From Marine Group II euryarchaeote MED-G34 (lineage in GTDB: Archaea; Thermoplasmatota; Poseidoniia; Poseidoniales; Thalassarchaeaceae), in contig NTJT01000009.1 in the NCBI GenBank assembly GCA_002457605.1, forward strand, positions 1 through 39,455: 39,455 bases of DNA, read 5' to 3'. Made by a program: the position numbers and the translations under genes. The notes under the pieces were generated by a model, which ran no database searches, was not told the DNA's origin, and worked only from the letters and a program-made list of their open reading frames with translations. Positions 10,554 to 29,509 of the stretch are shown piece after piece. Numbering within the stretch: position 1 is the stretch's first letter; every line of letters starts with the position of its first letter.

Positions 10554-12125
10554 TCAAACGCTCTCTGGGATGTAGTACAGGTCGACGCTCCCGGTCCCTA
10601 GTGCAACCGGTTGACCCACGATGATATTCTCAGTGACTCCGCTGAGCTCGTCCCTCTCGCCTATCACTCCAGCCTGTAGTAGATGTGTAACAGTAACCTC
10701 GAAGGCCGAGCGTGCTAGGATACTGTGCTTGGTGCCGCTGACTCCATGCCTACCTATGGCGCGAACTGTACCTTCACTGGACATAACGTCGGCTACCGTC
10801 AGCAAGTGACGTATGTCGACATCGAGTCCAGCTCCCTCGAGAGTATCATACATCTCATTGATAATCGCCTGCCTAGCGGCTTCGATACCGAGATACTGAT
10901 TAATCTCAGAGATATTGTTAGTGTAGGTCCTAGCCCTATCCACTCCAGCGAACTCACTGACCTTAGCCAGATTCGATCCGATAGTAGAGATGTAGTACTC
11001 GCCGGTGTCTCTGCTCGGACCCTGGACGTTAGCGCGGGTGATATCAGCCAGACCTTTGAGCCTAAGTTTCTTGATTTTCTCCTCGAGTTGGAGAAGTGCA
11101 GTGTAGGTCGCAGGATCTGATGCTAGTTGCGCTAGGTCCTCTTCCTTAGTTACGCCTGGAATTATCGTGAGGACTTTTGGGCGTTCATCGTTATCTGCTT
11201 GGATGAACAACCGCAGCGCCCTTGACAGTTTGTCCCTGACTTCAGCGCCAGTCATGGCCTTGATTCGCATATTGGGATTACTGAGTTGAAGACTGATGTG
11301 TCGCTGGGTGACTTCGACATTGATTCTGGCGATGTCCGGTGTGGTGGTTGTCTCCAGTGCGGCAGCGATTTTTCGACAAGCCTTCTCATTGGTGTTGAGA
11401 GGTTTTCCTTTGGAGTTAGTTTCTTCGAGATAAATTAGCATCGTGGGGGTCTTCGGAACCTTCCGAGCATCCACTATCTCGATGACTCTGGGAAGACCCT
11501 GGGTCACGTTGACGGTAGCAACCCCTGCATAGTGGAAAGTCCTCATAGTCATCTGAGTGCCTGGCTCACCGATTGATTGGGCGGTGGTGATACCGACAGC
11601 CTCGTGTGGATCCGCCCTAGCTGTGGCCAAGAAACTCTCCGAAGAATTCAGCACCTTCTTGGCTTTAGCGGGAGTCAGTTTGTCAATGCCCCTAGAGCGA
11701 ATCCCCTCGGCTAGATCACCTAGAATACGAGGAGTCATAGAGAGATTCATCTTGATTGAGGTATCTTGGAGCAGTTGGTATATCGCATCGTCCGTGTCGA
11801 TATCACGGAGAATTTGCTTAAGCTTGGCTTCCTCGTCATATTCCTGAAGTGGGAGAGCCTTCTTCTTACGTCTCCTAGAGACTGCCCTTCTCCTCACGAT
11901 AGTCTTCTCAGCGGATGCAGTTGCCCTGGATGGTTTAGCGGACGCCTCCATCACTTTGAATATCTCTTGGGAGGTGCCAGAATCGATACCGCAGATTTGG
12001 GCTATCTGACCTGATGTCAGTATCTTCACATCGTCCCACTTACGATCATCCGCGAGCTTGTGTGAGTACTCCTCGGCCACACCGAGATCCATGAGTTTCT
12101 TCTTGGTGGCACTCTTGACTACCAT
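10554..12125 (-). CDS. rpoA2: DNA-directed RNA polymerase subunit A'' with extra N-terminal domain
   Basis: This is the C-terminal half of the largest polymerase subunit (RpoA''), which supplies the trigger loop and part of the jaw. The core begins near residue 95. The segment around 178-215 ([36 protein letters not shown]) is the near-invariant trigger-loop region. At 523 residues it is longer than usual because about 90 residues precede the core: a 60-residue helical domain (1-60, [20 protein letters not shown]) and a basic linker ([12 protein letters not shown]). That domain is clearly homologous to the N-terminus of RpoH in the same operon, with 23 of the first 50 positions identical in my hand alignment. 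It abuts rpoA1 (shared base 12125). Confidence 0.96.
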
Positions 12126-18936: not shown

Positions 18937-19524
18937 TCAAGCGCTCTCTACAATCAACCTGTACGCCGTGCTGGAACCTGCTGAACGACTGTACCTGACT
19001 ACTCTGACAATCCTGTTTGTAAGCCAACCTGCAGGGAGTTCATCGTCTCCAACCTCGACTGCTTCTTTGATTGCCTGCACAGCAGGATCAGTGATGAGTA
19101 TCTTTGGCAGTAGTTCCTTGGCCAATCGGGTGGTGCCGTCAGCGTTCTCCTGAGACAGATCCCATGGAGCCAGCGCGGCCTCTTCTTCGTCATGAGGAAC
19201 TAATTCATGATGGGGGACTAGGATGTGATTGAGTACGTTGAACCTGTCATCGCCTTGGGGGATATCGGCATCAAGCAAGGCCTTCCTGGAGATAGTTACC
19301 CTACCAGTGCGTGTCCTCTTTCGTGACGCCATCTGCTCTCTGATTACAGCCATCACATTCTCAAGATCGGCGTCACCAGTCTCTAGCTCGAGTTTTTTGG
19401 CGACTTGATCGACTGACATGCGCTTGATAGCATCCATGTTCGCATCGTCGGCTAGCCGGTGCGCGTGAGTCTCGGATACACCGAGTTCCATCAGGCGCTT
19501 TTTCGTAGAACTCTTTACTGCCAT
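18937..19524 (-). CDS. rpoH: DNA-directed RNA polymerase subunit H with extra N-terminal domain
   Basis: The archaeal Rpo5/RPB5 C-terminal-domain homologue, an assembly-stabilising jaw subunit, is normally about 75-85 residues; here it has 195. The classical domain starts near residue 95 (RFNVLNHILVPHHELV) and includes LPKILITDPAVQAI and the ending IVRVVRYSRSAGSSTAYRLIV, with a short insertion before the final strand pair. It is preceded by a 60-residue helical domain (MAVKSSTKKRLMELGVSETH) and a basic linker. That domain matches the N-terminus of RpoA'' and has a helix-hairpin-helix-like look (LMELGVSETHAHRLADD). The ATG at 19524 is chosen over the upstream in-frame start at 19545, because MAVKSS aligns exactly with MVVKSA of RpoA''. 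It is the first gene of the polymerase operon. Confidence 0.93.
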   Translation of the reverse strand: MAVKSSTKKRLMELGVSETHAHRLADDANMDAIKRMSVDQVAKKLELETGDADLENVMAVIREQMASRKRTRTGRVTISRKALLDADIPQGDDRFNVLNHILVPHHELVPHDEEEAALAPWDLSQENADGTTRLAKELLPKILITDPAVQAIKEAVEVGDDELPAGWLTNRIVRVVRYSRSAGSSTAYRLIVESA

Positions 19525-19540
19525 ATCACGCCCCCTGCCC

Positions 19541-19573
19541 CGCAAAAACCGTGAGCCTGAGGCGTTGTCAGGC
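19541..19573 (-). terminator. Hairpin plus T-tract after tRNA-Lys (terminator or processing signal)
   Basis: On the minus strand, the 3' end of the tRNA runs into GCCTGA-CAACGCC-TCAGGC (19573-19555), a perfect 6-base-pair stem, followed eight bases later by TTTTT (19548-19544). This could end the tRNA transcript or mark 3' processing. The T-tract also lies about 20 bases before the rpoH ATG, so it could instead be part of the rpoH promoter. The stem is certain, the role is not. Confidence 0.35.
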
Positions 19574-19646: not shown

Positions 19647-19820
19647 ATAGCAAGTGCTGGGCCTTCAGCGGACCGAGGGGGGGTTGAAAAAGATTACTGA
19701 AAGAGCAATGCTACGCTCCGCACGGATGCGACTCCTCCTTGGGGGGGCGGAGATATCGAATCGGTGTCAGGGGCCTGTACGAATAAAGGTTTTCAGAATC
19801 TACCTGTAGCGGAGGTCCAG

Positions 19821-21185
19821 ATGTACGAAGAACACCGCCATCCTCACCACAGAGCAGGGGGCAAATCGACATCATCAAAGTTCGAAATCGGAGATTCAGG
19901 GCCGTGGGAAATAACGGTCCCACACACAGTTTACCCTCCTCGTGAAGACACCGCCCTACTAGGCCGAGCGTTACTACGGCTGTCTGGTGACTGTGGACAG
20001 GCTACCGAGATTGGATGCGGTAGTGGAGCACTCTCGATTCTGCTCGCCTCGATGGGGTGGAAGGTTGCTGCATGTGATGTCAACCCGTTCGCTGTCGCAG
20101 CGGCTAGGGGCAATGTGGAGAAAGCCGGTTTCGCAGACGTGGTTAATGTCGACGAAGGTGGTCCTGGAGAGCCGGAGTGGGAATTACAAGAAGGGGTTAA
20201 TCTAGTAGTTTGGAACCTACCATATCTGGACCCTTTGGAACATGATGGAGTTTCTCTTGAACCCATTGAAGAGGCTTCGATGTCTGACCTCCCTAGAGGT
20301 TGGTCGGATAAACTTCTAGAGATTGTCGATGATGATCTAATTGATCCGCGTTGCCTAGTAGTTATGCTTCACCGCACCGATCCCGAAAGTCGCAGCAAAC
20401 CTGACAGTTGGATTCGGAACGGATGGTCTTGCAGGCAATTGGACAGTATGAGGCTGGCTGATGAGAGACTCGAGGTGCTGTGCTACTGGAGACCTGGAGC
20501 AGGAGGGGCTGTCACGGTCATGGCTGAGTGTGAATCGACGATGGACGAGGCAAAACAACTCATTGATGGAGGCTGGCAGAGGTTACTTTCTCTCTCACAG
20601 ACCTCCGGCCGAGGCAGGAGAGGAAGTTCATGGCAGACTCAGGAAGGAGGGTTAGCATGCACTTGGGTTCTTTCTGAGGAGATTTTGAAACGGTACCCTC
20701 CTGGACTCATACAGACCTCGGTCGGTGCCGCGGTTTCAGAAGCCTTGGGCTGTTGTGTCAAATGGCCAAACGACTTGGTGACCGAAGATGGTAGGAAACT
20801 GGGAGGTATACTCGTAGAAGGGGATTCAGAGGATGATGGCATCAGAGTTGGTATCGGGCTCAACAAACGGGGCGGTATTATCGATGAAGTGGCTGTAGCC
20901 GGATGGGATGAATACGTTGGAGAGAAAACAGCGATCGAGGTCTTCGACATACTAGATCCGGTTATCTCATCGTACTTCGAGGAGCATTCCCTTGCACCCC
21001 CTGTGGAGGAGAATGAATTGGTGGCACTGTCTTGGAAGAGTCTAGCAAGGTCGCTTTCAACAGGAGTAGGTCTCAAATCCAAGGGATTACGTGTGAGGGC
21101 AGTGGGTTTGAGTTCGGGGGGCCATCTGTTGACCGAGTTCAATGGATTGGTTGTAACGGTTGATGATATCAACACACTCGACTGA
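19821..21185 (+). CDS. Fusion: HemK/Mtq2-like methyltransferase and biotin protein ligase (BirA)
   Basis: 454 residues in two domains. Residues about 25-225 form a class I SAM methyltransferase of the HemK/PrmC/Mtq2 type: VYPPREDTALL entry motif, SAM-binding EIGCGSGAL (63-71), CDVNP acidic strand, and NLPY (132-135) where release-factor methylases have NPPY. Residues about 232-454 form a biotin protein ligase: ESTMDEAK, GRGRRGSSW (263-271), KWPNDL (314-319) and KLGGIL (326-331). The latter should biotinylate the carrier at 35872. No HTH repressor domain is present. The start at 19821 has GGAGGT four bases before it and a TATA-like AATAAAGG about 30 bases upstream; an in-frame GTG at 19764 is less likely. 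The fusion is uninterrupted in one frame. Confidence 0.88.
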   Translation: MYEEHRHPHHRAGGKSTSSKFEIGDSGPWEITVPHTVYPPREDTALLGRALLRLSGDCGQATEIGCGSGALSILLASMGWKVAACDVNPFAVAAARGNVEKAGFADVVNVDEGGPGEPEWELQEGVNLVVWNLPYLDPLEHDGVSLEPIEEASMSDLPRGWSDKLLEIVDDDLIDPRCLVVMLHRTDPESRSKPDSWIRNGWSCRQLDSMRLADERLEVLCYWRPGAGGAVTVMAECESTMDEAKQLIDGGWQRLLSLSQTSGRGRRGSSWQTQEGGLACTWVLSEEILKRYPPGLIQTSVGAAVSEALGCCVKWPNDLVTEDGRKLGGILVEGDSEDDGIRVGIGLNKRGGIIDEVAVAGWDEYVGEKTAIEVFDILDPVISSYFEEHSLAPPVEENELVALSWKSLARSLSTGVGLKSKGLRVRAVGLSSGGHLLTEFNGLVVTVDDINTLD

Positions 21186-21537: not shown

Positions 21538-22443
21538 TCAAAGACCACTGACTACTGCGACCAACCTGATTCGCCCCCTCATCTCGTCACTTGCCCTTGC
21601 TCCCATGATTACTTGGCAATCAGGATCGAGGGAGGAGACGAATGCCTCTGTAACCTCATTCAGATGAGCTAGTGTCATGTCAGGACCTCCCTCTACCTGT
21701 ATCATGCACCCTTTGGCACCATCAACTCTAAGATCTGATAATGGTGACTTACGTGCCTCGCCAACCACCTTATCTGGCCTGTCAGTGGTCCCGGTTCCGA
21801 CAATCAGAGTGGCGTTCCCTGGTCTATTGATTACAGTCCTGAGGTCCATCAGATCGAGATTGATCTTCCCTACCTTAGCAAGAGTAGTCACCAGCCCTTC
21901 AACCAATTCACCAATCCATCCCGATCCTGTCCTCCAGTCATCGTCCCTGTGTCGCGCCTGCCATGCCAACCTCTCCATACTGACTCTGATACAAACGTGG
22001 GAGTTCTCCTCTAGTGCTTGAATTGCGGTCTCGGCAATCTTGCATCGCAGAGGCTGTTCAGCGAAAGGCAGACCTGCGATGGCGATTACGAGACAGTCGT
22101 TCTCATACGCCAGAGAAGCCAATTCAGCCGAGGCACCCGAACCCATCCCCCCTCCGAGTCCTGTCATTATGACTACGAGTTCGGCCTGCTCAAGTAATGG
22201 AGCTACAGAGTCAATGCCGTCCCTGAGGCGGTGAGCTGCCAGTGCGGGAAGAGCGGCGGTGCCTCGGCCATCCCCTCCTGCATCGAGATGCAGGCAGTGT
22301 GCTGCCGAGGCCCCAGCGAATGAAGCCTCATCGGCATCTATGAGCAGTAAGTCAGCTAGTTCGGAACATTTTGTATGAGCCCTCTCAGCCCATGTGCAAC
22401 CTATTCCTCCGACGCCGGCAACGAGAATCGCACCCTCGTCCAT
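21538..22443 (-). CDS. Divergent FtsZ/tubulin-family GTPase
   Basis: About 301 residues spanning the FtsZ core. The T1 loop is GVGGIG (10-15), the tubulin signature T4 is GLGGGMGSG (95-103), the T7 catalytic loop is N195-x-D197-x-x-D200 (INLDLMDLRTVI), and the C-terminal domain has EGGPDMTLAHLNE (251-263) and the final DPDCQVIMGA...GRIRLVAV strands. Differences from canonical FtsZ are M100 where the signature has T, a serine in place of the guanine-contacting asparagine (VSMERL), and no C-terminal tail for FtsA/SepF-type partners. The ATG at 22443 is chosen because the conserved core begins immediately after it. An ATG at 22486-22488 would overlap the TPR gene. It may be a regulatory paralogue rather than the main division ring protein. 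Confidence 0.8.
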   Translation of the reverse strand: MDEGAILVAGVGGIGCTWAERAHTKCSELADLLLIDADEASFAGASAAHCLHLDAGGDGRGTAALPALAAHRLRDGIDSVAPLLEQAELVVIMTGLGGGMGSGASAELASLAYENDCLVIAIAGLPFAEQPLRCKIAETAIQALEENSHVCIRVSMERLAWQARHRDDDWRTGSGWIGELVEGLVTTLAKVGKINLDLMDLRTVINRPGNATLIVGTGTTDRPDKVVGEARKSPLSDLRVDGAKGCMIQVEGGPDMTLAHLNEVTEAFVSSLDPDCQVIMGARASDEMRGRIRLVAVVSGL

Positions 22444-22480
22444 GCGACACCCCTCGTGGCGGGGGCCGTTTAGAATGTGC

Positions 22481-22786
22481 TCAATCATAAGTAAGGAGGC
22501 GCTGGTATCTCCTTCTCTCATCTCGTGCCCAAGCATTGTCCGGCTCAATCTGCAATACGCGTTCATAGTACTCGATGGCCTTCTCCCATTCAGACAGGTA
22601 GCGACCATACATGTGACCCAGATTATTGAGTACTGGAACACAATCAGAATCTCCCTCCAATAGTTCTATCAGAATGGATTCGGCGTTATTTATATCCAGC
22701 ATCTCCATGAGATTCTCTGCCTCTTCGAGACGTTGCAACTGCTCCTCAGAGAGACGGTATACATTACGCCATTGAGGTCCTGACAC
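22481..22786 (-). CDS. Small TPR-repeat protein
   Basis: A 101-residue, fully helical protein with a GTG start. It contains about two tetratricopeptide units: NNAESILIELLEGDSDCVPV then LNNLGHMYGRYLSEWEKAIE followed by YYERVLQIEPDNAWARDE. The last has the typical A..YYE.AL...P.....A form. TPRs mediate protein contacts. It is the first gene of a minus-strand pair with the FtsZ-like GTPase (37-base gap), so a role as partner or adaptor for that GTPase is plausible but inferred. Confidence 0.75.
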   Translation of the reverse strand: MSGPQWRNVYRLSEEQLQRLEEAENLMEMLDINNAESILIELLEGDSDCVPVLNNLGHMYGRYLSEWEKAIEYYERVLQIEPDNAWARDERRRYQRLLTYD

Positions 22787-22935: not shown

Positions 22936-23751
22936 GTGAGCAGGGTTGGAGCATACTCTCAAAGAGCCTTCATACTCGGGCTAATTGCCCTGCTCATAGC
23001 AGGAGGGACACAGGCGTCGCACCTCGGTATCGGAGGCGATGCCAACGGTGACGGAGATGTTTCCATTGCAGGATGCACTTGCCATAGCGAAGACCCCGAT
23101 AACTCTGTGACCATATTAATCGAGGGAATGCCATACCATTACGAGTCGGGGATTCAATATAATCTGGTCATCCAGTTAATCGGAGGGCCTGACATAGACA
23201 CCTCCTCAAACACTGGTGGGTTCTCAATGATGGTCAGTTCGGGAGTCCTCAGTGCTGGAGAAGGATTTGAAACAATGGTCCAAAACTGGGAGGATGACCT
23301 CACTAGATTGACTCATACAAACTCAGGATCGCAAACGGAAGATAGGAGTTGGCATGTTGTCTGGACAGCTCCTCCTTCGGGAGAAGGTGTAGTCACGATG
23401 TGGCTCGCAGGGAACGCGGTTAATGGCGATCAGATACCCAGTGTTTTAGACAAGTGGAATAGACTCACGGCTACTGTCGATGAAGGTTCTGATGATGGAA
23501 GGACTCGGACAGTCTTCTCCGGAAACGGTGAGATTGAGCCCCCAGCCCCTGCCGAACATGGTGTACATATCCATGAAATGGGTGCTGGACTCAGGGCGCA
23601 CTGGCTCGGCTTGCTGGGATTCGCAGCAGTAATCATCGTCCTGCTCTTCTGCGGATTGTTTCTCCGTTATGGATTCTCCAGGCACTATGTAGGGAGGAGT
23701 AATCTTCTGCGTCTCAGAATCAAGCATCTTCGAAGAGGTGATCAACTGTGA
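22936..23751 (+). CDS. Secreted/membrane-anchored C-x-C-H protein (choice-of-anchor/Reeler-like)
   Basis: 271 residues with a GTG start. An N-terminal signal peptide (residues about 10-27, FILGLIALLIAGGTQA) is followed by a calcium-binding-like loop (GDANGDGDVS), the motif GCTCHS, a beta-sandwich region (about 55-190) with GGF, W.APPSGEG and WLAGNAVNGD typical of choice-of-anchor/Reeler-like domains, and a C-terminal membrane helix (about 226-248) with a basic cytoplasmic tail. The motif is C-x-C-H, not the classic haem c site CxxCH; it might bind a haem or metal, or be structural. It is the first gene of the operon that contains Rieske and cytochrome b, so an extracytoplasmic electron-acceptor or anchoring role is inferred. 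The next gene starts within its stop codon. Confidence 0.72.
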   Translation: MSRVGAYSQRAFILGLIALLIAGGTQASHLGIGGDANGDGDVSIAGCTCHSEDPDNSVTILIEGMPYHYESGIQYNLVIQLIGGPDIDTSSNTGGFSMMVSSGVLSAGEGFETMVQNWEDDLTRLTHTNSGSQTEDRSWHVVWTAPPSGEGVVTMWLAGNAVNGDQIPSVLDKWNRLTATVDEGSDDGRTRTVFSGNGEIEPPAPAEHGVHIHEMGAGLRAHWLGLLGFAAVIIVLLFCGLFLRYGFSRHYVGRSNLLRLRIKHLRRGDQL

Positions 23752-24197
23752 AAGAAGACATCGTGATGAAATTGCTCAGACAAGTAAAGTCTGGTGAGGT
23801 CAGCGTAGAGGACGCACGCGTTGCTCTTGAGGATACCGTTTTGACAGTAGAGGAGTTCGGCGCAGCCGTCGACCATGGGGTGTTCAACGAGCCTGAAATG
23901 GGCACGGTCGTAAGAGCCTCTGTATCGCCCTTCGGAGACTCTATACTGATTCTACTACTGTCCCTTTGGGGTATATTGTGGAGTCTTTACTGGGCAGGGG
24001 CGTTGACCTATGGACTGTTCAATGGTTGGGATCAGCAATCGCTGTCATTCCATATGGGTATGCTCATGCTGACTATAATCATCATAGGTATGGTATATCT
24101 GAAGTTCGTGATGCCCGACGTTGTCATAGTCAAGCACAGGGGCAACAAGTACATCACTTCAAATGACCCTGATGGGTGGAAACAGTACGAGGTATGA
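23748..24197 (+). CDS. Two-helix membrane protein of the respiratory operon
   Basis: 149 residues with a GTG start overlapping the previous stop by four bases. The N-terminal helical stretch LLRQVKSGEVSVEDARVALE resembles SHOCT-like or DUF2089-like segments. Two membrane helices follow near 65-90 and 103-122, then a short hydrophilic tail. It lacks haem-ligand-like histidine pairs and cysteines. Its fixed place between the C-x-C-H protein and the Rieske gene, with overlaps on both sides, suggests an accessory subunit or assembly factor of the complex. No family is recognised. Confidence 0.7.
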   Translation: MKEDIVMKLLRQVKSGEVSVEDARVALEDTVLTVEEFGAAVDHGVFNEPEMGTVVRASVSPFGDSILILLLSLWGILWSLYWAGALTYGLFNGWDQQSLSFHMGMLMLTIIIIGMVYLKFVMPDVVIVKHRGNKYITSNDPDGWKQYEV

Positions 24198-25054
24198 TGA
24201 TGGCGAGAAGATTCAGACTCAGGCCCGTTCCCGGTGAAGCTAGTGCCTCTTCGGAGCCTCCAAACATGATTGATAGGAGGGAGTTCATGCGCCACTCTTT
24301 CAACACCGCTGCGGGTGTCATCACTATGGCGAGTATTGGCGCTATCGGCTTCGCATCTCTCCTAATGGGACAGTCTGATGCAGACGGCGGGGACTCTTCT
24401 GTGCGCTTCTGGGTACCCACCGGTGCCGAGGATTCTGCTTGGTACGGTGACTTGCACCTTGAGCAGATGGACTTTCAGTCCTTCGTCGATGCAGCTGCAA
24501 CCTCGACTACTGGGATGGCGGGGGCTTCTGGAGTTTGGTCCGGCCTCCCTGTCAATGTGATTTATGTCCCTCACGATGAGAACTCTCAGTCCGCACTAGA
24601 GGAAAACAAGCCCCGATTCCAATTCATGGATGGTTACAACGAGAGCGGTGCCTATGTGGGCTCTGGCTTCGAGGTCGACGAGAAACCTGAATACGAGGCC
24701 CTTTCGATTCATGACAACATGATTATCATATTCTCAAGGTGTCCACACTTGTGCTGCATCCCGGGTTGGCAACTGGTTGCAAATGACTTCACTAGTGATC
24801 AATGGAGTCCAGGGGGTGCTGATGCTGGCGGCAACAAGTTGTTCTGTATATGTCACTCCAGTAGGTACGACCCCACGGTCATCGAGAAGAATCGTAACAG
24901 GAACAGGACCAATGGAACCGAGTTCGACTTCATAGGAGTGAAGAGAACCGGGGGCCCTGCGCCAATGGGTATGCCATTGATTCCATTCGAGGTCAACGGG
25001 GGAATCATCGAGGCTCTCGACGACTTCAAAGATTGGTACACATTTTGTGAGTAG
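24194..25054 (+). CDS. Rieske [2Fe-2S] protein with Tat-type signal anchor
   Basis: 286 residues. Near residues 28-57 a twin-arginine-like signal (RREFMR followed by a hydrophobic helix) suggests folded export by Tat and retention as an anchor. The Rieske fold has both cluster boxes: box 1 C183-P-H185-L-C-C188 and box 2 C218-I-C220-H221-S-S. C183, H185, C218 and H221 are the cluster ligands, and C188/C220 the disulfide pair. The box 2 serine and the tyrosine that raise Rieske potential are present (HSSRY). The insertion between box 1 and the N-terminal part is long. The ATG at 24194 overlaps the previous stop (ATGA), with two more in-frame ATGs directly after it. It should accept electrons from quinol at the Qo site of the following cytochrome b. 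Confidence 0.94.
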   Translation: MMMARRFRLRPVPGEASASSEPPNMIDRREFMRHSFNTAAGVITMASIGAIGFASLLMGQSDADGGDSSVRFWVPTGAEDSAWYGDLHLEQMDFQSFVDAAATSTTGMAGASGVWSGLPVNVIYVPHDENSQSALEENKPRFQFMDGYNESGAYVGSGFEVDEKPEYEALSIHDNMIIIFSRCPHLCCIPGWQLVANDFTSDQWSPGGADAGGNKLFCICHSSRYDPTVIEKNRNRNRTNGTEFDFIGVKRTGGPAPMGMPLIPFEVNGGIIEALDDFKDWYTFCE

Positions 25055-25062
25055 GTGATTTA

Positions 25063-25929
25063 GTGATTCAGTTCTGGTTCCTGTGGCTTTTCATTGCCAT
25101 CGTTGTGGTCCTCGTGGCCTTCACACTACGCAAGGAGAGGGACGAAATGCCGAGGACCGATATCCTGCGGGCTGTAGAGACTAGTGCGGGCAGTATGGGT
25201 CTCGCAGAGAAGGGATTCCTGTGGGCATTCTCCTGGCTCGATACAAGATTCCGAATCCAAGACTACTGGGGGATGAGTAAGGATGCATACCACCACATGC
25301 ACAGGCAGATGCCACTTACACACGCTGAGAAGTACAAGTTGCGCATCATCTGGTACTGGTATCCCTTGTATTGCCTCGGAGGAATCTCCTTCCTCGCTTT
25401 CATAATACTGGTAATATCAGGGACGGTACTGGGCCTTTACTACGTCCCCGGAGGAGAGGGGACTCCTTCTCCTGCTTACCTCAGTATGGAGTTCATCATG
25501 GTCGACTTACCGTTCGGCTACATCATGAGATCGATACACCACTGGACGACTCACTTCATGGTGGCGGCGGTGTTCCTTCACATGTGCAGAGTATACTTCA
25601 CCGGAGCGTACCGTAACCCACGTGAGTTGAACTGGCTCATCGGGGTCGCATTGATGTTCTTCACTATCTTCTTCGGCTACTCCGGTTACCTGTTGCCTTG
25701 GGACAGTCTGGCCTTTGGAGCTGCTACCATAGGCATTAACATGGCCAGTTCGACTCCACTAGTAGGTGGTTGGATGGCCAAGGCGCTGTTCGCAGGCACC
25801 ACCCTATCCGGCCAGACGGTGACTAGAATGTACTTCCTGCATGTCTTCATCCTCCCTGTCCTAGTGACCGGCCTGATTCTAGCGCACCTGTTCATCGTAT
25901 GGGTACAGGGTATAGCGGAGCCGCATTGA
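25063..25929 (+). CDS. Cytochrome b, N-terminal (b6-type) subunit
   Basis: A 288-residue membrane protein with a GTG start. An extra N-terminal helix (about 5-22) and a soluble linker precede the four-helix haem bundle. Haem ligands by alignment with cytochrome b6 are H159 and H173 (RSIHHWTTH...FLHMCRVY) and H260 and H275 (FLHVF...AHLFIVWVQG). The 15-residue spacing of the second pair is that of b6 rather than mitochondrial-type b. The sequence TGAYRNPRELNW also matches b6. It carries the two b haems of a bc-type quinol-oxidising complex. It ends ten bases before the gene for the C-terminal half. Confidence 0.95.
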   Translation: MIQFWFLWLFIAIVVVLVAFTLRKERDEMPRTDILRAVETSAGSMGLAEKGFLWAFSWLDTRFRIQDYWGMSKDAYHHMHRQMPLTHAEKYKLRIIWYWYPLYCLGGISFLAFIILVISGTVLGLYYVPGGEGTPSPAYLSMEFIMVDLPFGYIMRSIHHWTTHFMVAAVFLHMCRVYFTGAYRNPRELNWLIGVALMFFTIFFGYSGYLLPWDSLAFGAATIGINMASSTPLVGGWMAKALFAGTTLSGQTVTRMYFLHVFILPVLVTGLILAHLFIVWVQGIAEPH

Positions 25930-25938
25930 GGTAATAGT

Positions 25939-28749
25939 ATGGGAATGATAGACAGGTTTGGGAGGATTGCTGATACCTACGTCAGCGAGAGAGACCAGTT
26001 GTTAGAGGCGGATGATGAGAGGCGCCGGGTATTCGTCGGTCATGCCTTTTGGCCAACCGAGATTATCCGGGACAGTATCATCCTAGCAGCGATGATTGCG
26101 GTAATCTCGTTCTACTCCTGGATTATCCCTCCTCCACTCCACAGTGCGGCCGACCCGTTTGCTCAGGCCGGGTTCGTCTTTCCAGATTGGTATGTACTGT
26201 TCTCGTACGGGTATCTGAGATGGGGCGAGTACCTCCCCCAGTTCATCATTCCCGCTGGGCCAATTGGGGACTTCTTTGGTTCACCGGTTATCGCTTGGAA
26301 CGCTGGTTGGTGGGGCTCGGCCTTGACAGGCATTCCCGTTGGCTTGTTGGCACTTCCTCCGTTCATCATCGGAAAGAGGGAGAAGCGGGGTGTCGAGGAC
26401 CCTTGGTTCGCCACTGCTGGGGCTGTTTATCTGGCTCATGTATGGTTCATCTCTGTATTCTCAATCAACATCTTCCTCGAACTCTACTCAAAGGACCTTA
26501 GCAACTATTGTTGGTCAGACTCTCACAACTACTTGTTTTGTGGACGGCAGGCTCCTTGGACGGCTGATGTATTCAACGCCATACCATGGGTCTTGACGGG
26601 TATATTCGTATTCGCTGCGTTATACTTCGGCGTGAGGTGGTTCGTACTGAACTCGATTGGTGCGAGACTCTCGCCGATTATCGGCAGACAGATTGCAATC
26701 GGCACTATCGTGGCTACCGTAATCATCTCAGTAGTGACATGGCCCATCTATGATAGTGGCTTCTGGGACTATGGGGGTCTCGGTGCAATGGACGAAATAG
26801 AGGATCTTGATGGGCTGCGAGCTCAGCCCTCGGACACTCTTGTGCACGAAGGCAAGGGTAACGTATGGGCAGAATGGGAGGATGACTGTCTCCCCTACTC
26901 GGAGACACAGAGTTTGGCAGTGTGGGATGGTTTCGACTTCGAACATGACGATTCCAGCGACTGGTGTGTGATAGCGGCAGCAAATTGGGCTGATTGGGGA
27001 ATCTACCAACCCACCAAGAAGATCATCATAGACTTTGCAGGAGACAACGGACATGCTGACGCCGGGATTGGAAGAAACACCGGTGGTTCAATCACTACAT
27101 ACCCAGGGAATGCAGATGAGTCGTCAATAGCAATCACCGATAGCAGCACATTTGAAGTCGAAAATCTCGGAGTTTCTAATGTCCCTGCAGATGTGGGTTG
27201 CACGTTCCGTACGGTTTACACAGATACAGGCGATTCTGCTCGTAATGCGGGCACCCACTCACAGAGTATCAAACTCCTAGACTCTTCTGGATCGATTCTG
27301 TGGGAGAACGAAGGTGGCGTGTGCGAGTCGGCTACAATCTACCTGCTAACTGGAGCGAGTTACACAGTTAGTTTCTCATTCAATTCAGAGGGTGTCAACG
27401 AATCTATTTCTATGGCCACAGACTTCTCGGCAGTGGCCCATCAGCCTCTCCTACTCAGCGATGACGGAACGGCTGTGGTTAGGTCTGAATCTTCTCTAAG
27501 TCTTGATGAGCTTGCCGCACTCTCCCTCGACAACCCGACTTATCACAAAAATCCAAAGGGACTCGATGCCAAGTTAATCTACAGCCTATCCATCCCCTGT
27601 CTCGGTGTAGGTGCGATTGTGTTCATGGTCATGCGTAGCATGGCCCGAGGATACGAGTGGGAAATGAACAAGTGCTACGGCTGCGACCTATGCGACGACG
27701 CCTGCCCAGTTAGACTATTCAACGCCGGTGACAAACTGAACATCATCTACAACACCTGGAACAACGAAGATGACGGTGTTCCACTGTATTCGTGCCTAAC
27801 TTGCACAGCCTGCACCAATGCCTGCCCACAGTTGGTGGACTATGACTCCTACGTCGACATTCGAAGGAATCTCATCGTCGGCGGCCCACCGGCCACCGAG
27901 ATTCCGCACACACTGCTTCAGGCTGTGCTGGCTGCAGAGGCCGAGGAAGATGCTGATGAGGCCTTTGTCTCAATTGAGGACTACCCGTTAGACTCCAACG
28001 TCGGCTACTACCCAGGGTGCGTAGATTACATCGATCAGGAGATGGTCTTCAGCCATGTAAACGAGGGGGAGATGAATCTCGGAGAGACTACCACTGCCGC
28101 CTTCACCCTCTTTGAGGAGATGGGCGAGGATGTCACCTACCTAGGCCGTGACTTCCTGAAGTGCTGCGGTCACGACCAGAAGTGGCAGGGCCTATCAGAG
28201 GTCTTTGAGAAACTGAAGGCATACAACCAGAAGAAACTGGGTGAAAGCGGTATTGACACTCTGGTCACCTCGTGTGCTGAGTGCTTCAGAACTTTCGCCC
28301 TAGATTACGAGTTGGACGAGATGAAGGTCATGCACACTACCGAGTACCTAGTCGAGAAGGGATTCGACATGGACTTGGCCGTGGACGACGACGTCACCGT
28401 AACCTATCACGACCCATGTCGCCTCGGGCGTCAAATGGACCTCTACGACAAGCCTCGTGATTTGGTCGAGTCGGTTGAGGGAGTAAATCTCGTAGAAATG
28501 GAGCATCACGGCGAAGACGCGTTGTGCTGCGGCGTCTCCAGCATGATGGCCTGCAACGAAAACAGTAGGGGCCTGCGTCTACAGCGCTTCGACGAGGTGA
28601 AAGCGACTGGGGCAGAAGTGATGCTTACGACCTGCCCTAAGTGTGTGGCACATTTTGAGTGCCTCAAGTTCGAGGGCGATCCGCGTCATGATTTCGAGAT
28701 TCTCGACGTTGTCAGTTTCCTTGCCCGCCAAGTGAACTCTAGAGAATAG
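25939..28749 (+). CDS. Fusion: cytochrome b C-terminal half + HdrD-like Fe-S/CCG module
   Basis: 936 residues. Residues about 35-275 are a subunit IV-like cytochrome b C-terminal region with five or so membrane helices and the Qo-site motif P82-D-W-Y85. Residues about 282-540 form an acidic, beta-rich, probably extracytoplasmic insertion. A membrane helix at about 546-568 leads to a cytoplasmic module: two ferredoxin motifs (C579/C582/C585/C589 and C619/C622/C625/C629), then two complete CCG domains (C694, C742-C743-G, C779/C782; and C827, C863-C864-G, C899/C902) as in HdrD/HdrB, GlpC and DsrK-type proteins. One reading frame spans all parts. Known families suggest that CCG domains hold noncubane or [4Fe-4S] clusters that act on disulfides or transfer electrons. 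The joint function is inferred. Confidence 0.92.
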   Translation: MGMIDRFGRIADTYVSERDQLLEADDERRRVFVGHAFWPTEIIRDSIILAAMIAVISFYSWIIPPPLHSAADPFAQAGFVFPDWYVLFSYGYLRWGEYLPQFIIPAGPIGDFFGSPVIAWNAGWWGSALTGIPVGLLALPPFIIGKREKRGVEDPWFATAGAVYLAHVWFISVFSINIFLELYSKDLSNYCWSDSHNYLFCGRQAPWTADVFNAIPWVLTGIFVFAALYFGVRWFVLNSIGARLSPIIGRQIAIGTIVATVIISVVTWPIYDSGFWDYGGLGAMDEIEDLDGLRAQPSDTLVHEGKGNVWAEWEDDCLPYSETQSLAVWDGFDFEHDDSSDWCVIAAANWADWGIYQPTKKIIIDFAGDNGHADAGIGRNTGGSITTYPGNADESSIAITDSSTFEVENLGVSNVPADVGCTFRTVYTDTGDSARNAGTHSQSIKLLDSSGSILWENEGGVCESATIYLLTGASYTVSFSFNSEGVNESISMATDFSAVAHQPLLLSDDGTAVVRSESSLSLDELAALSLDNPTYHKNPKGLDAKLIYSLSIPCLGVGAIVFMVMRSMARGYEWEMNKCYGCDLCDDACPVRLFNAGDKLNIIYNTWNNEDDGVPLYSCLTCTACTNACPQLVDYDSYVDIRRNLIVGGPPATEIPHTLLQAVLAAEAEEDADEAFVSIEDYPLDSNVGYYPGCVDYIDQEMVFSHVNEGEMNLGETTTAAFTLFEEMGEDVTYLGRDFLKCCGHDQKWQGLSEVFEKLKAYNQKKLGESGIDTLVTSCAECFRTFALDYELDEMKVMHTTEYLVEKGFDMDLAVDDDVTVTYHDPCRLGRQMDLYDKPRDLVESVEGVNLVEMEHHGEDALCCGVSSMMACNENSRGLRLQRFDEVKATGAEVMLTTCPKCVAHFECLKFEGDPRHDFEILDVVSFLARQVNSRE

Positions 28750-28859
28750 TTACGAATGTAGAGATTGCTGTAAGAGTCAGATTGATGCTGAGTCTCGCGC
28801 CATCCGGTGTAGTACCAAGGTGGCAGAGAGAAGCATACATTGAGAATGTGTGACTCTAG

Positions 28860-29201
28860 TTGCCGGACGTGACGGAGATACCAGACCTGCTGGCCCGCCG
28901 GGCCGCCGAACAGAGACGCATTCGGATGATGCTCGATTCAATGAGGGCAGAGGAGGAAGCTAAAATCAAGGGAGGAGAGGACGCTGTCGCATGGGTCAAA
29001 AAGGAACTGTGCATAGGTTGCGACCAGTGCACTATAGTCTGTGATGATGATGCCATTGAGCTTTACGACACCCCTCTCGCAAGTCCAATCATGGAAGTAG
29101 AAGTGAATCGTAAAGCAAAAATCCTGCGGGATGAGTGTACGGGATGCAAGTTGTGTGTGTTAGGCTGCCCGACCGATGCGATAATCATGATTGACAGGTA
29201 G
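28860..29201 (+). CDS. 2[4Fe-4S] ferredoxin with helical N-terminus
   Basis: 113 residues from a TTG start; a GTG at 28869 or an ATG at 28926 are alternatives. A charged helix (about 10-45) precedes two cluster motifs: C51/C54/C57/C61, where the usual proline after the last cysteine is D62, and C93/C96/C99/C103-P. Each cluster's fourth ligand would be supplied by the other motif in the usual way. It follows the cytochrome b-CCG fusion by 110 bases and is the obvious soluble or peripheral electron partner for that module's cytoplasmic Fe-S clusters. Confidence 0.85.
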   Translation: MPDVTEIPDLLARRAAEQRRIRMMLDSMRAEEEAKIKGGEDAVAWVKKELCIGCDQCTIVCDDDAIELYDTPLASPIMEVEVNRKAKILRDECTGCKLCVLGCPTDAIIMIDR

Positions 29202-29209
29202 GAATAGTC

Positions 29210-29509
29210 GTGGAAGATAAGGAGCCTTTGAGATTCGGGGCTGAGTTCGGCCCTAAGAGGAGCAGTCGCTCCAGTGGCGTCTCCCTTTCGACCTTCAAGA
29301 CACTAGTATGGGTGTCCAACATAGGTGGTCTAGTTTTGTTCGTGATTGGCCTTGAACTAATGATAGTGATGCAGTCATTCTACTTCGGTCTCGGTTGTAT
29401 AATGGCTGGGATAATCATCGCACTGTTCCCCTCGAACTACGAGATAGTGGGAATGGATGACATCGCTATCGGAGATGAAGATGGCGAATCTGAGGAAGAG
29501 ACGGGGTAG
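29210..29509 (+). CDS. Small two-helix membrane protein
   Basis: 99 residues with a GTG start, eight bases after the ferredoxin. A basic N-terminus (about 1-30) is followed by two membrane helices, about 33-55 (VWVSNIGGLVLFVIGLELMI) and 57-74, and an acidic C-terminal tail (DEDGESEEE). No cofactor ligands are seen. It is probably a small subunit or membrane anchor for the ferredoxin in the same complex, by position only. Confidence 0.68.
   Translation: MEDKEPLRFGAEFGPKRSSRSSGVSLSTFKTLVWVSNIGGLVLFVIGLELMIVMQSFYFGLGCIMAGIIIALFPSNYEIVGMDDIAIGDEDGESEEETG

What the first reader, a model, noticed from the sequence alone, without database searches (positions are those of the whole stretch)
22936..29509. 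A Rieske/cytochrome b operon merged with a heterodisulfide-reductase-type module
Seen: seven consecutive plus-strand genes with overlaps or short gaps encode a C-x-C-H surface protein, a two-helix protein, a Tat-Rieske, b6-type cytochrome b, a cytochrome b C-half fused to ferredoxin and CCG domains, a 2[4Fe-4S] ferredoxin and a two-helix protein. Known: bc complexes oxidise quinol and reduce extracytoplasmic acceptors, while HdrD/DsrK-type CCG proteins act on cytoplasmic thiols or ferredoxins. Inferred: one complex joins both, perhaps splitting or confurcating quinol electrons between a high-potential outside route (Rieske) and a low-potential cytoplasmic route. No cytochrome c1 is visible, and the C-x-C-H protein may stand in for it.
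Basis: partly seen in the sequence, partly recalled or inferred. Interest (0 to 1): 0.88.

Follow-up and report, generated by a model that had tools for sequence, protein, structure and literature searches.

The report
Respiratory complex III with ferredoxin arm
Common surface-ocean archaea appear to build their respiratory complex III with a built-in cytoplasmic iron-sulfur arm of the disulfide-reductase kind, which may let low-potential electrons from metabolism enter the complex directly.

Summary
The operon is real and nearly fixed in class Poseidoniia (Marine Group II and kin): 57 of 58 readable GTDB loci keep the order CxCH protein, DUF7318, Rieske, cytochrome b6-like half, fusion. The fusion joins a cytochrome b C-half (PDWY) to two [4Fe-4S] motifs and two HdrB/EtfD-type CCG domains. 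It is no assembly artefact: 80 of 80 loci share one junction at the tail of the last cytochrome helix. One family of the class splits the arm over separate genes of the same operon. Two other Thermoplasmatota lineages carry the fusion without the outer domain; nine genomes have the operon without the arm. I read it as a b6f-like complex III with a cytoplasmic electron-exchange arm, most likely feeding ferredoxin electrons to the inner heme/quinone site (0.5). The CxCH protein is predicted to fold like reeler domains (Z 11.1) and cytochrome f (Z 10.8), without detectable sequence kinship to cytochrome f. A 2022 paper already noted hdrD-like and rnfB-like genes beside complex III in Angelarchaeales and proposed ferredoxin entry (passages).

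The parts
22936..23751 (+). Choice-of-anchor V (reeler-type) surface protein: signal peptide, CxCH (23074-23085), beta domain, C-terminal helix; cytochrome f-like predicted fold
   Evidence: NF041895; CxCH in 61 of 61 relatives read; model and fold comparison
23748..24197 (+). DUF7318 two-helix protein
   Evidence: PF24002, 27.5 bits against cut-off 27
24176..25054 (+). Tat-type Rieske protein
   Evidence: motifs; TIGR01416 below cut-off
25063..25929 (+). Cytochrome b6-like half; Cys104 (25372-25374) at the heme-ci position of b6
   Evidence: PF00033; alignment to 1q90_B
25939..28749 (+). Fusion protein: cytochrome b C-half, outer domain, 2[4Fe-4S], two CCG domains
26182..26193 (+). PDWY (PEWY-type) motif of the quinol-oxidising site, residues 82-85 of the fusion
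   Evidence: sequence; invariant in the 7-row alignment
26554..27549 (+). Two extra helices and outer beta domain, absent from the f22 and f25 fusions
   Evidence: alignment, model
27559..27642 (+). Last cytochrome helix, directly before the iron-sulfur arm
   Evidence: model; junction survey
27658..27837 (+). Two C..C..C...CP [4Fe-4S] motifs
   Evidence: 76 of 76
28006..28284 (+). CCG domain 1
28399..28656 (+). CCG domain 2 (PF02754)
28860..29201 (+). RnfB-like 2[4Fe-4S] ferredoxin
   Evidence: present with the two-helix gene in 64 of 67 loci
29210..29509 (+). Two-helix protein, no confident family

Best explanation
The operon encodes one membrane complex III of cytochrome b6f-like build, with a cytoplasmic iron-sulfur arm grafted onto the last helix of cytochrome b. 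Outside, quinol is oxidised at the PDWY/Rieske site and Rieske electrons leave through the reeler/cytochrome f-like protein, or directly, to a copper protein and the oxidase. Inside, the ferredoxin subunit, two CCG domains and two fused [4Fe-4S] clusters form a wire from cytoplasmic low-potential donors, most likely reduced ferredoxin, to the inner hemes (bH and, where its cysteine is present, heme ci) and so to quinone at the inner site. The complex would be both a quinol oxidase and a ferredoxin:quinone reductase. Shown: genes, order, fusion, motifs, predicted folds. Inferred: assembly into one complex, cofactors, outer acceptor, donor and direction of flow.
For: Order fixed in 57 of 58 loci; ferredoxin and two-helix genes stay near in 64 of 67, even when on the other strand (35). 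The arm begins at the same place in all 80 loci and in the f22, f25 and split forms (YExx[LM]NxC), just where the nine arm-less relatives end. Six predicted helices put PDWY outside and the arm inside (parity inference). CCG half models on EtfD, LutA, HdrB. Cytochrome b6 is the closest solved relative, and Cys104 aligns with b6 Cys35; Cys in 71 of 71 readable loci of 80. NuoF missing in 57 of 60 class genomes while NuoD-type PF00346 is in 56 of 60. Ferredoxin entry at complex III was proposed for Angelarchaeales.
Against: No biochemistry and no multimer model. The heme-ci link is loose: Ser in 13 of 18 loci of family f3, and Cys in one of nine arm-less genomes. Two complete CCG motifs suggest thiol or disulfide chemistry that a plain wire does not need. 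The closest CCG structure, EtfD, serves a flavoprotein (recalled). In f25 the next gene is HdrA/MvhD-like, not a plain ferredoxin. PF00346 is not specific to complex I: its control also rings in Methanocaldococcus jannaschii.
Confidence: 0.5

Rival explanations
1. The CCG arm is a docking site for a cytoplasmic flavoprotein (ETF-like, HdrA-like or a dehydrogenase), which feeds its electrons into the inner quinone site.
For: Closest folds are EtfD (Z 22.2) and LutA (Z 21.9); in f25 the overlapping next gene is HdrA/MvhD-like; closest NCBIfam models include LdhH, GlpC, GlcF.
Against: A ferredoxin gene, not a flavoprotein gene, is the usual neighbour in the class (64 of 67). Separate CCG membrane proteins that look EtfD/EMO-like exist in the same class.
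Confidence: 0.2
2. The arm does thiol/disulfide chemistry: quinone-linked oxidation of dithiols or reduction of a disulfide.
For: Both CCG motifs complete in 76 of 76 loci; fold like HdrB (Z 19.4); best NCBIfam model is TfrB, thiol:fumarate reductase (3.7e-29, far below cut-off).
Against: First CCG reads CSG in 13 of 17 readable f3 loci and in the f1 genome G098, so that site is not strictly kept. No thiol substrate is known to me for these cells.
Confidence: 0.13
3. One reading: quinol electrons are bifurcated, one to the Rieske protein and one through the b hemes to a low-potential cytoplasmic acceptor.
For: The layout has a high-potential outer exit and a cytoplasmic iron-sulfur exit; bc complexes bifurcate at the outer site (passages of PMC6037941).
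Against: Quinol to ferredoxin is strongly uphill, and the inward step opposes the membrane potential (general knowledge). No result here points to that direction.
Confidence: 0.12
4. The arm is present but exchanges no electrons with the quinone cycle (structural, sensing or cluster storage).
For: Nine genomes have the same operon without it, so the core does not need it.
Against: Cluster ligands of both ferredoxin motifs and CCG2 kept in 76 of 76 loci; the arm sits directly at the inner end of the helix.
Confidence: 0.05

Closest known systems
Cytochrome b6f complex
   Same: Split cytochrome b; b6 is the best solved match; cysteine at the heme-ci position; Rieske; a CxCH protein with a cytochrome f-like predicted fold and layout
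   Different: Cytoplasmic [4Fe-4S]/CCG arm fused to the C-half; outer beta domain; CxCH instead of CxxCH; no detectable sequence kinship of the CxCH protein to cytochrome f
Complex III of Ca. Angelarchaeales with hdrD-like and rnfB-like genes nearby (PMC9038741, passages)
   Same: Same phylum; same association of complex III with CCG-type and RnfB-like parts; ferredoxin entry proposed in one sentence
   Different: The passages speak of proximal genes; they do not mention a fusion, its junction or Poseidoniia
EtfD, LutA, HdrB/HdrD, TfrB (CCG proteins)
   Same: Two [4Fe-4S] motifs plus two CCG domains; fold Z 19-22
   Different: Here the membrane partner is a Rieske-type cytochrome b half; in EtfD and HdrDE-type enzymes it is another kind of membrane domain (recalled)
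RnfB
   Same: Best NCBIfam model of the ferredoxin gene
   Different: 44.8 bits against a cut-off of 68.7, and only the ferredoxin part matches

Membership tests
Rieske/cytochrome b (bc-type) complexes | Cytochrome b with heme histidines and a PEWY-type motif | tested here: met
   Histidines line up with b6 in the printed alignment, 14 residues between the helix-D pair counted from it; PDWY
Rieske/cytochrome b (bc-type) complexes | Rieske protein with both cluster boxes in the same operon | tested here: met
   CxHLxC...CxCHxSx[YF] in 63 of 65 Rieske ORFs read; order 57 of 58
Rieske/cytochrome b (bc-type) complexes | c-type heme subunit | tested here: inconclusive
   CxCH in 61 of 61; CxxCH in the G344 relative; a single cysteine in the G354 relative; heme itself not testable
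Cytochrome b6f complex | Cysteine for covalent heme ci | tested here: met
   Window Cys104; 71 of 71 readable of 80 loci; but Ser in 13 of 18 f3 loci
Cytochrome f | CxxCH heme motif | tested here: not met
   CxCH in the window and in 61 of 61 relatives
Cytochrome f | Cytochrome f fold | tested here: inconclusive
   Z 10.8, rmsd 3.2, 142 aligned, tied with reeler; not among Foldseek's top 50; profile comparison probability 0.1%
HdrB/HdrD-type CCG proteins | Two CCG motifs plus two [4Fe-4S] motifs | tested here: met
   76 of 76; fold
HdrB/HdrD-type CCG proteins | Heterodisulfide or other disulfide reduction | not testable with these tools
   biochemical
RnfB | Curated NCBIfam score | tested here: not met
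   44.8 bits against 68.7; one of 60 class genomes has any match over the cut-off
EtfD/EMO | Works with ETF | not testable with these tools
   biochemical

The most novel reading that the evidence does not exclude
A two-entry complex III: quinol:copper-protein oxidoreductase outside and ferredoxin (or thiol):quinone oxidoreductase inside, wired through heme ci, with a reeler-fold, cytochrome f-like outer subunit that has a one-residue-shorter CxCH heme site. It would be the standard complex III of Marine Group II archaea.
Probability: 0.25. Interest if true: 0.92.

Novelty: new variant of a known kind. Interest (0 to 1): 0.72.

Why it matters
Marine Group II is called the most common marine planktonic Archaea across the surface ocean (title of PMC6741140, passages seen) and was described as lacking cultured isolates (abstract start of PMC6336850). 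The main genome survey says that it lacks canonical complex III and carries an RnfB without the rest of Rnf (passages of PMC6336850). This operon offers an answer to both: complex III is there in a fused form, and an RnfB-like ferredoxin belongs beside it (that it is the same RnfB is inferred). If ferredoxin electrons enter complex III, the energy budget of these cells differs from textbook respiration. It would also be a covalently fused counterpart of the long-debated ferredoxin:plastoquinone route through b6f (recalled), and makes that question testable in a new system.

Tried and rejected
Assembly artefact: rejected. No listed match has a stop inside, and the junction is present once in each of 80 loci.

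Second bc complex in the same genome: the one Rieske Pfam match (contig C3) reads like a ring-hydroxylating oxygenase, by eye. That search did not list the window's own Rieske, so it cannot exclude another divergent one; the genome is 66% complete.

Strict link between heme-ci cysteine and the arm: 11 of 12 bearers had Cys and none of 4 readable non-bearers. It then weakened: 13 of 18 f3 loci have Ser and arm-less G344 has Cys. Within f3, the 13 Ser loci (all genus g24) have CSG in CCG1 in 12 of 12 readable; g23 has Cys with CCG (4 of 4); g25 has Cys with CSG (one locus). That is one lineage, so it is no independent evidence.

Single origin of the arm: the cytochrome b tree (24 rows) needs three changes, and only 1% of 200 bootstrap trees put the bearers on one side of one branch; the starred branches do not rule out one origin. 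The common junction speaks for one origin. Open.

Cytochrome f kinship by sequence: the PDB profile search listed no cytochrome f up to E 10; hhalign against one cytochrome f gave probability 0.1%; Foldseek listed only reeler domains at E <= 0.001 and no cytochrome f in its top 50. Control for the fold match: the search with the fusion model, which has another beta domain, listed no cytochrome f, but its list was filled by the CCG half, so the control is weak.

f25 fusion of a gene-1-like domain to cytochrome b: seen by eye (C-x5-CH); the NCBIfam scan at E <= 1e-4 did not list choice_anch_V for it.

RnfB identity: ferredoxins at other places of the same genomes score as well as the one of this operon (in the window genome 47.8 bits at contig C24, 43.7 here), so that the published orphan RnfB is this gene is inference.

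Model of the fusion: mean pLDDT 62.7, pTM 0.39; the cytochrome helices are poorly modelled. I use the CCG half and the outer domain only; the outer domain's match to GOLD domains is weak (Z 6.5).

Literature: ten searches. Passages seen of PMC6336850, PMC6037941, PMC9038741, PMC9287336, PMC3062577, PMC6741140; all else listings only. None of that text describes the fusion. Subscription journals are mostly not held. Haloarchaeal operons were not examined; a kinship through DUF7318 is a lead from recall.
Full report
Observation. Seven plus-strand genes occupy 22936-29509 as described. Gene 1 is a choice-of-anchor V (reeler-type) protein with CTCH, gene 2 DUF7318, gene 3 a Tat-type Rieske protein, gene 4 a cytochrome b6-like half, gene 5 a 936-aa fusion, gene 6 a 2[4Fe-4S] ferredoxin and gene 7 a short protein with two hydrophobic stretches. 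The Rieske protein escapes Pfam but has both boxes, with a long insertion between them.

Anatomy of the fusion. Residues 1-190 are the cytochrome b C-half with PDWY. Two extra helices and an outer beta domain (about 273-537) follow, then the last helix, two C..C..C...CP motifs and two CCG domains. Six predicted hydrophobic segments put both ends on one side, so PDWY faces out and the arm faces in (parity inference). In every arm-bearing family the module starts at YExx[LM]NxC. In the nine arm-less loci the protein ends there: five match YExxLNxxYYxxR-stop and four show variants of it. The junction occurs once in each of the 80 GTDB loci.

Is it fixed? In one search, 289 of 292 class genomes have some match to the fusion. 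By my count from that table 270 reach about 1e-69 or better, 19 have only weaker matches (a paralogue or a fragment) and 3 have none; many genomes are incomplete. Of 79 GTDB loci (L109-L187), 76 have the fusion with at least part of its cytochrome half; all 76 have both ferredoxin motifs and both full CCG motifs, and 73 have PDWY. Of 58 loci with enough upstream sequence, 57 show the full order; the exception, L171, lacks a detected Rieske ORF. Of 67 with enough downstream sequence, 64 hold the ferredoxin and the two-helix gene (58 with the two adjacent), the ferredoxin on the same strand in 29 and on the opposite strand in 35. The scan kept the best 80 of 519 relatives, so it says little about rarer bearers.

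Variation. In family f3 of the class (Marine Group III by my reading; no call names it) the cytochrome C-half carries only the two [4Fe-4S] motifs, the CCG protein is a separate overlapping gene, and a ferredoxin of about 280-320 aa with more clusters follows. Outside the class, one MAG titled Thermoplasmata archaeon nzgw66 (G314) and the two f25 genomes G322 and G327 carry the fusion without the outer domain. In f25 the next gene overlaps by 4 nt and has an HdrA-like N-terminus, ferredoxin sites and an MvhD/FlpD domain. Of 70 non-class genomes that I chose from 255, 18 have a match to cytochrome b. Twelve are of this operon type by my reading, three with the arm and nine without.

Heme ci. 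The best solved relative of gene 4 is cytochrome b6 (1q90_B, 1.8e-41); window Cys104 aligns with b6 Cys35, which carries heme ci (recalled). It is Cys in 71 of 71 readable of the 80 GTDB loci and in G314, G322 and G327. It is Ser in 13 of 18 f3 loci (the CCG gene was readable in 17 of the 18). Eight of the nine arm-less genomes have Thr, Ser or Ala, and one (G344) has Cys. I treat this as a suggestion only.

The CxCH protein. CxCH is in 61 of 61 relatives read. The relative in G344 has CxxCH and the one in G354 a single cysteine. The model (pLDDT 81.5) matches reeler domains (Z 11.1) and cytochrome f (Z 10.8, rmsd 3.2, 142 residues); 15 cytochrome f entries score 9.9-10.8, above the next fold at 8.8. 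Foldseek alone listed only reeler domains at E <= 0.001 and no cytochrome f in its top 50. No sequence kinship to cytochrome f was found. The layout agrees with cytochrome f: motif about 22 residues after the likely signal cleavage (by eye), beta domain, C-terminal helix. Cytochrome c assembly proteins (PF01578) match in 59 of 60 class genomes, so heme attachment is possible in principle. If it binds heme, this would be a cytochrome f-like subunit with an unusual site. PMC3062577 (passages) notes that different c-type subunits were recruited to bc complexes several times.

How it works. The CCG half is of the EtfD/LutA/HdrB fold (Z 22.2, 21.9, 19.4). Its first clusters sit at the inner end of the last cytochrome helix, so exchange with the inner heme/quinone site is the simplest reading. 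NuoF is absent in 57 of 60 class genomes while PF00346 (NuoD type) matches in 56 of 60 (that family also matches hydrogenase-type subunits, as its control shows). PMC6336850 calls complex I canonical. A complex I without its NADH module points to ferredoxin as a currency. I therefore prefer ferredoxin-to-quinone entry (0.5), over flavoprotein docking (0.2), thiol chemistry (0.13), quinol bifurcation (0.12) and a non-redox role (0.05).

Known or new. [quoted passage not shown] PMC6336850 (passages) reports cytochrome b and Rieske in Marine Group II without canonical complex III, and RnfB without the rest of Rnf. In the listings and passages I saw nothing describes the fusion, its junction, its spread through the class, the split form or the cytochrome f-like prediction. 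Hence: new variant of a known kind.

Noticed in passing
window 10554-12125 (-) and 18937-19545 (-): RNA polymerase subunits (PF04998, Rpo1C; PF01191, Rpo5) share an extra homologous N-terminal domain of about 60-80 residues (35% identity, E 8e-13).
   Followed up: partly
window 21538-22641 (-): FtsZ-family protein (PF00091, PF12327) on the opposite strand just upstream of the operon.
   Followed up: no
window 19764-21185 (+): A methyltransferase-like domain and a biotin/lipoate ligase domain in one frame.
   Followed up: no
L054, L060: Separate 665-673-aa membrane proteins with [4Fe-4S] and CCG motifs elsewhere in genomes of the class, read by eye as EtfD/EMO-type.
   Followed up: partly
L097:5714-6313: A glutaredoxin-like domain (PF05768) protein follows the arm-less operon in G354.
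   Followed up: no
L246, L247, L249: Other Thermoplasmatota carry different cytochrome b genes next to proteins with 8-12 CxxCH motifs.
   Followed up: no
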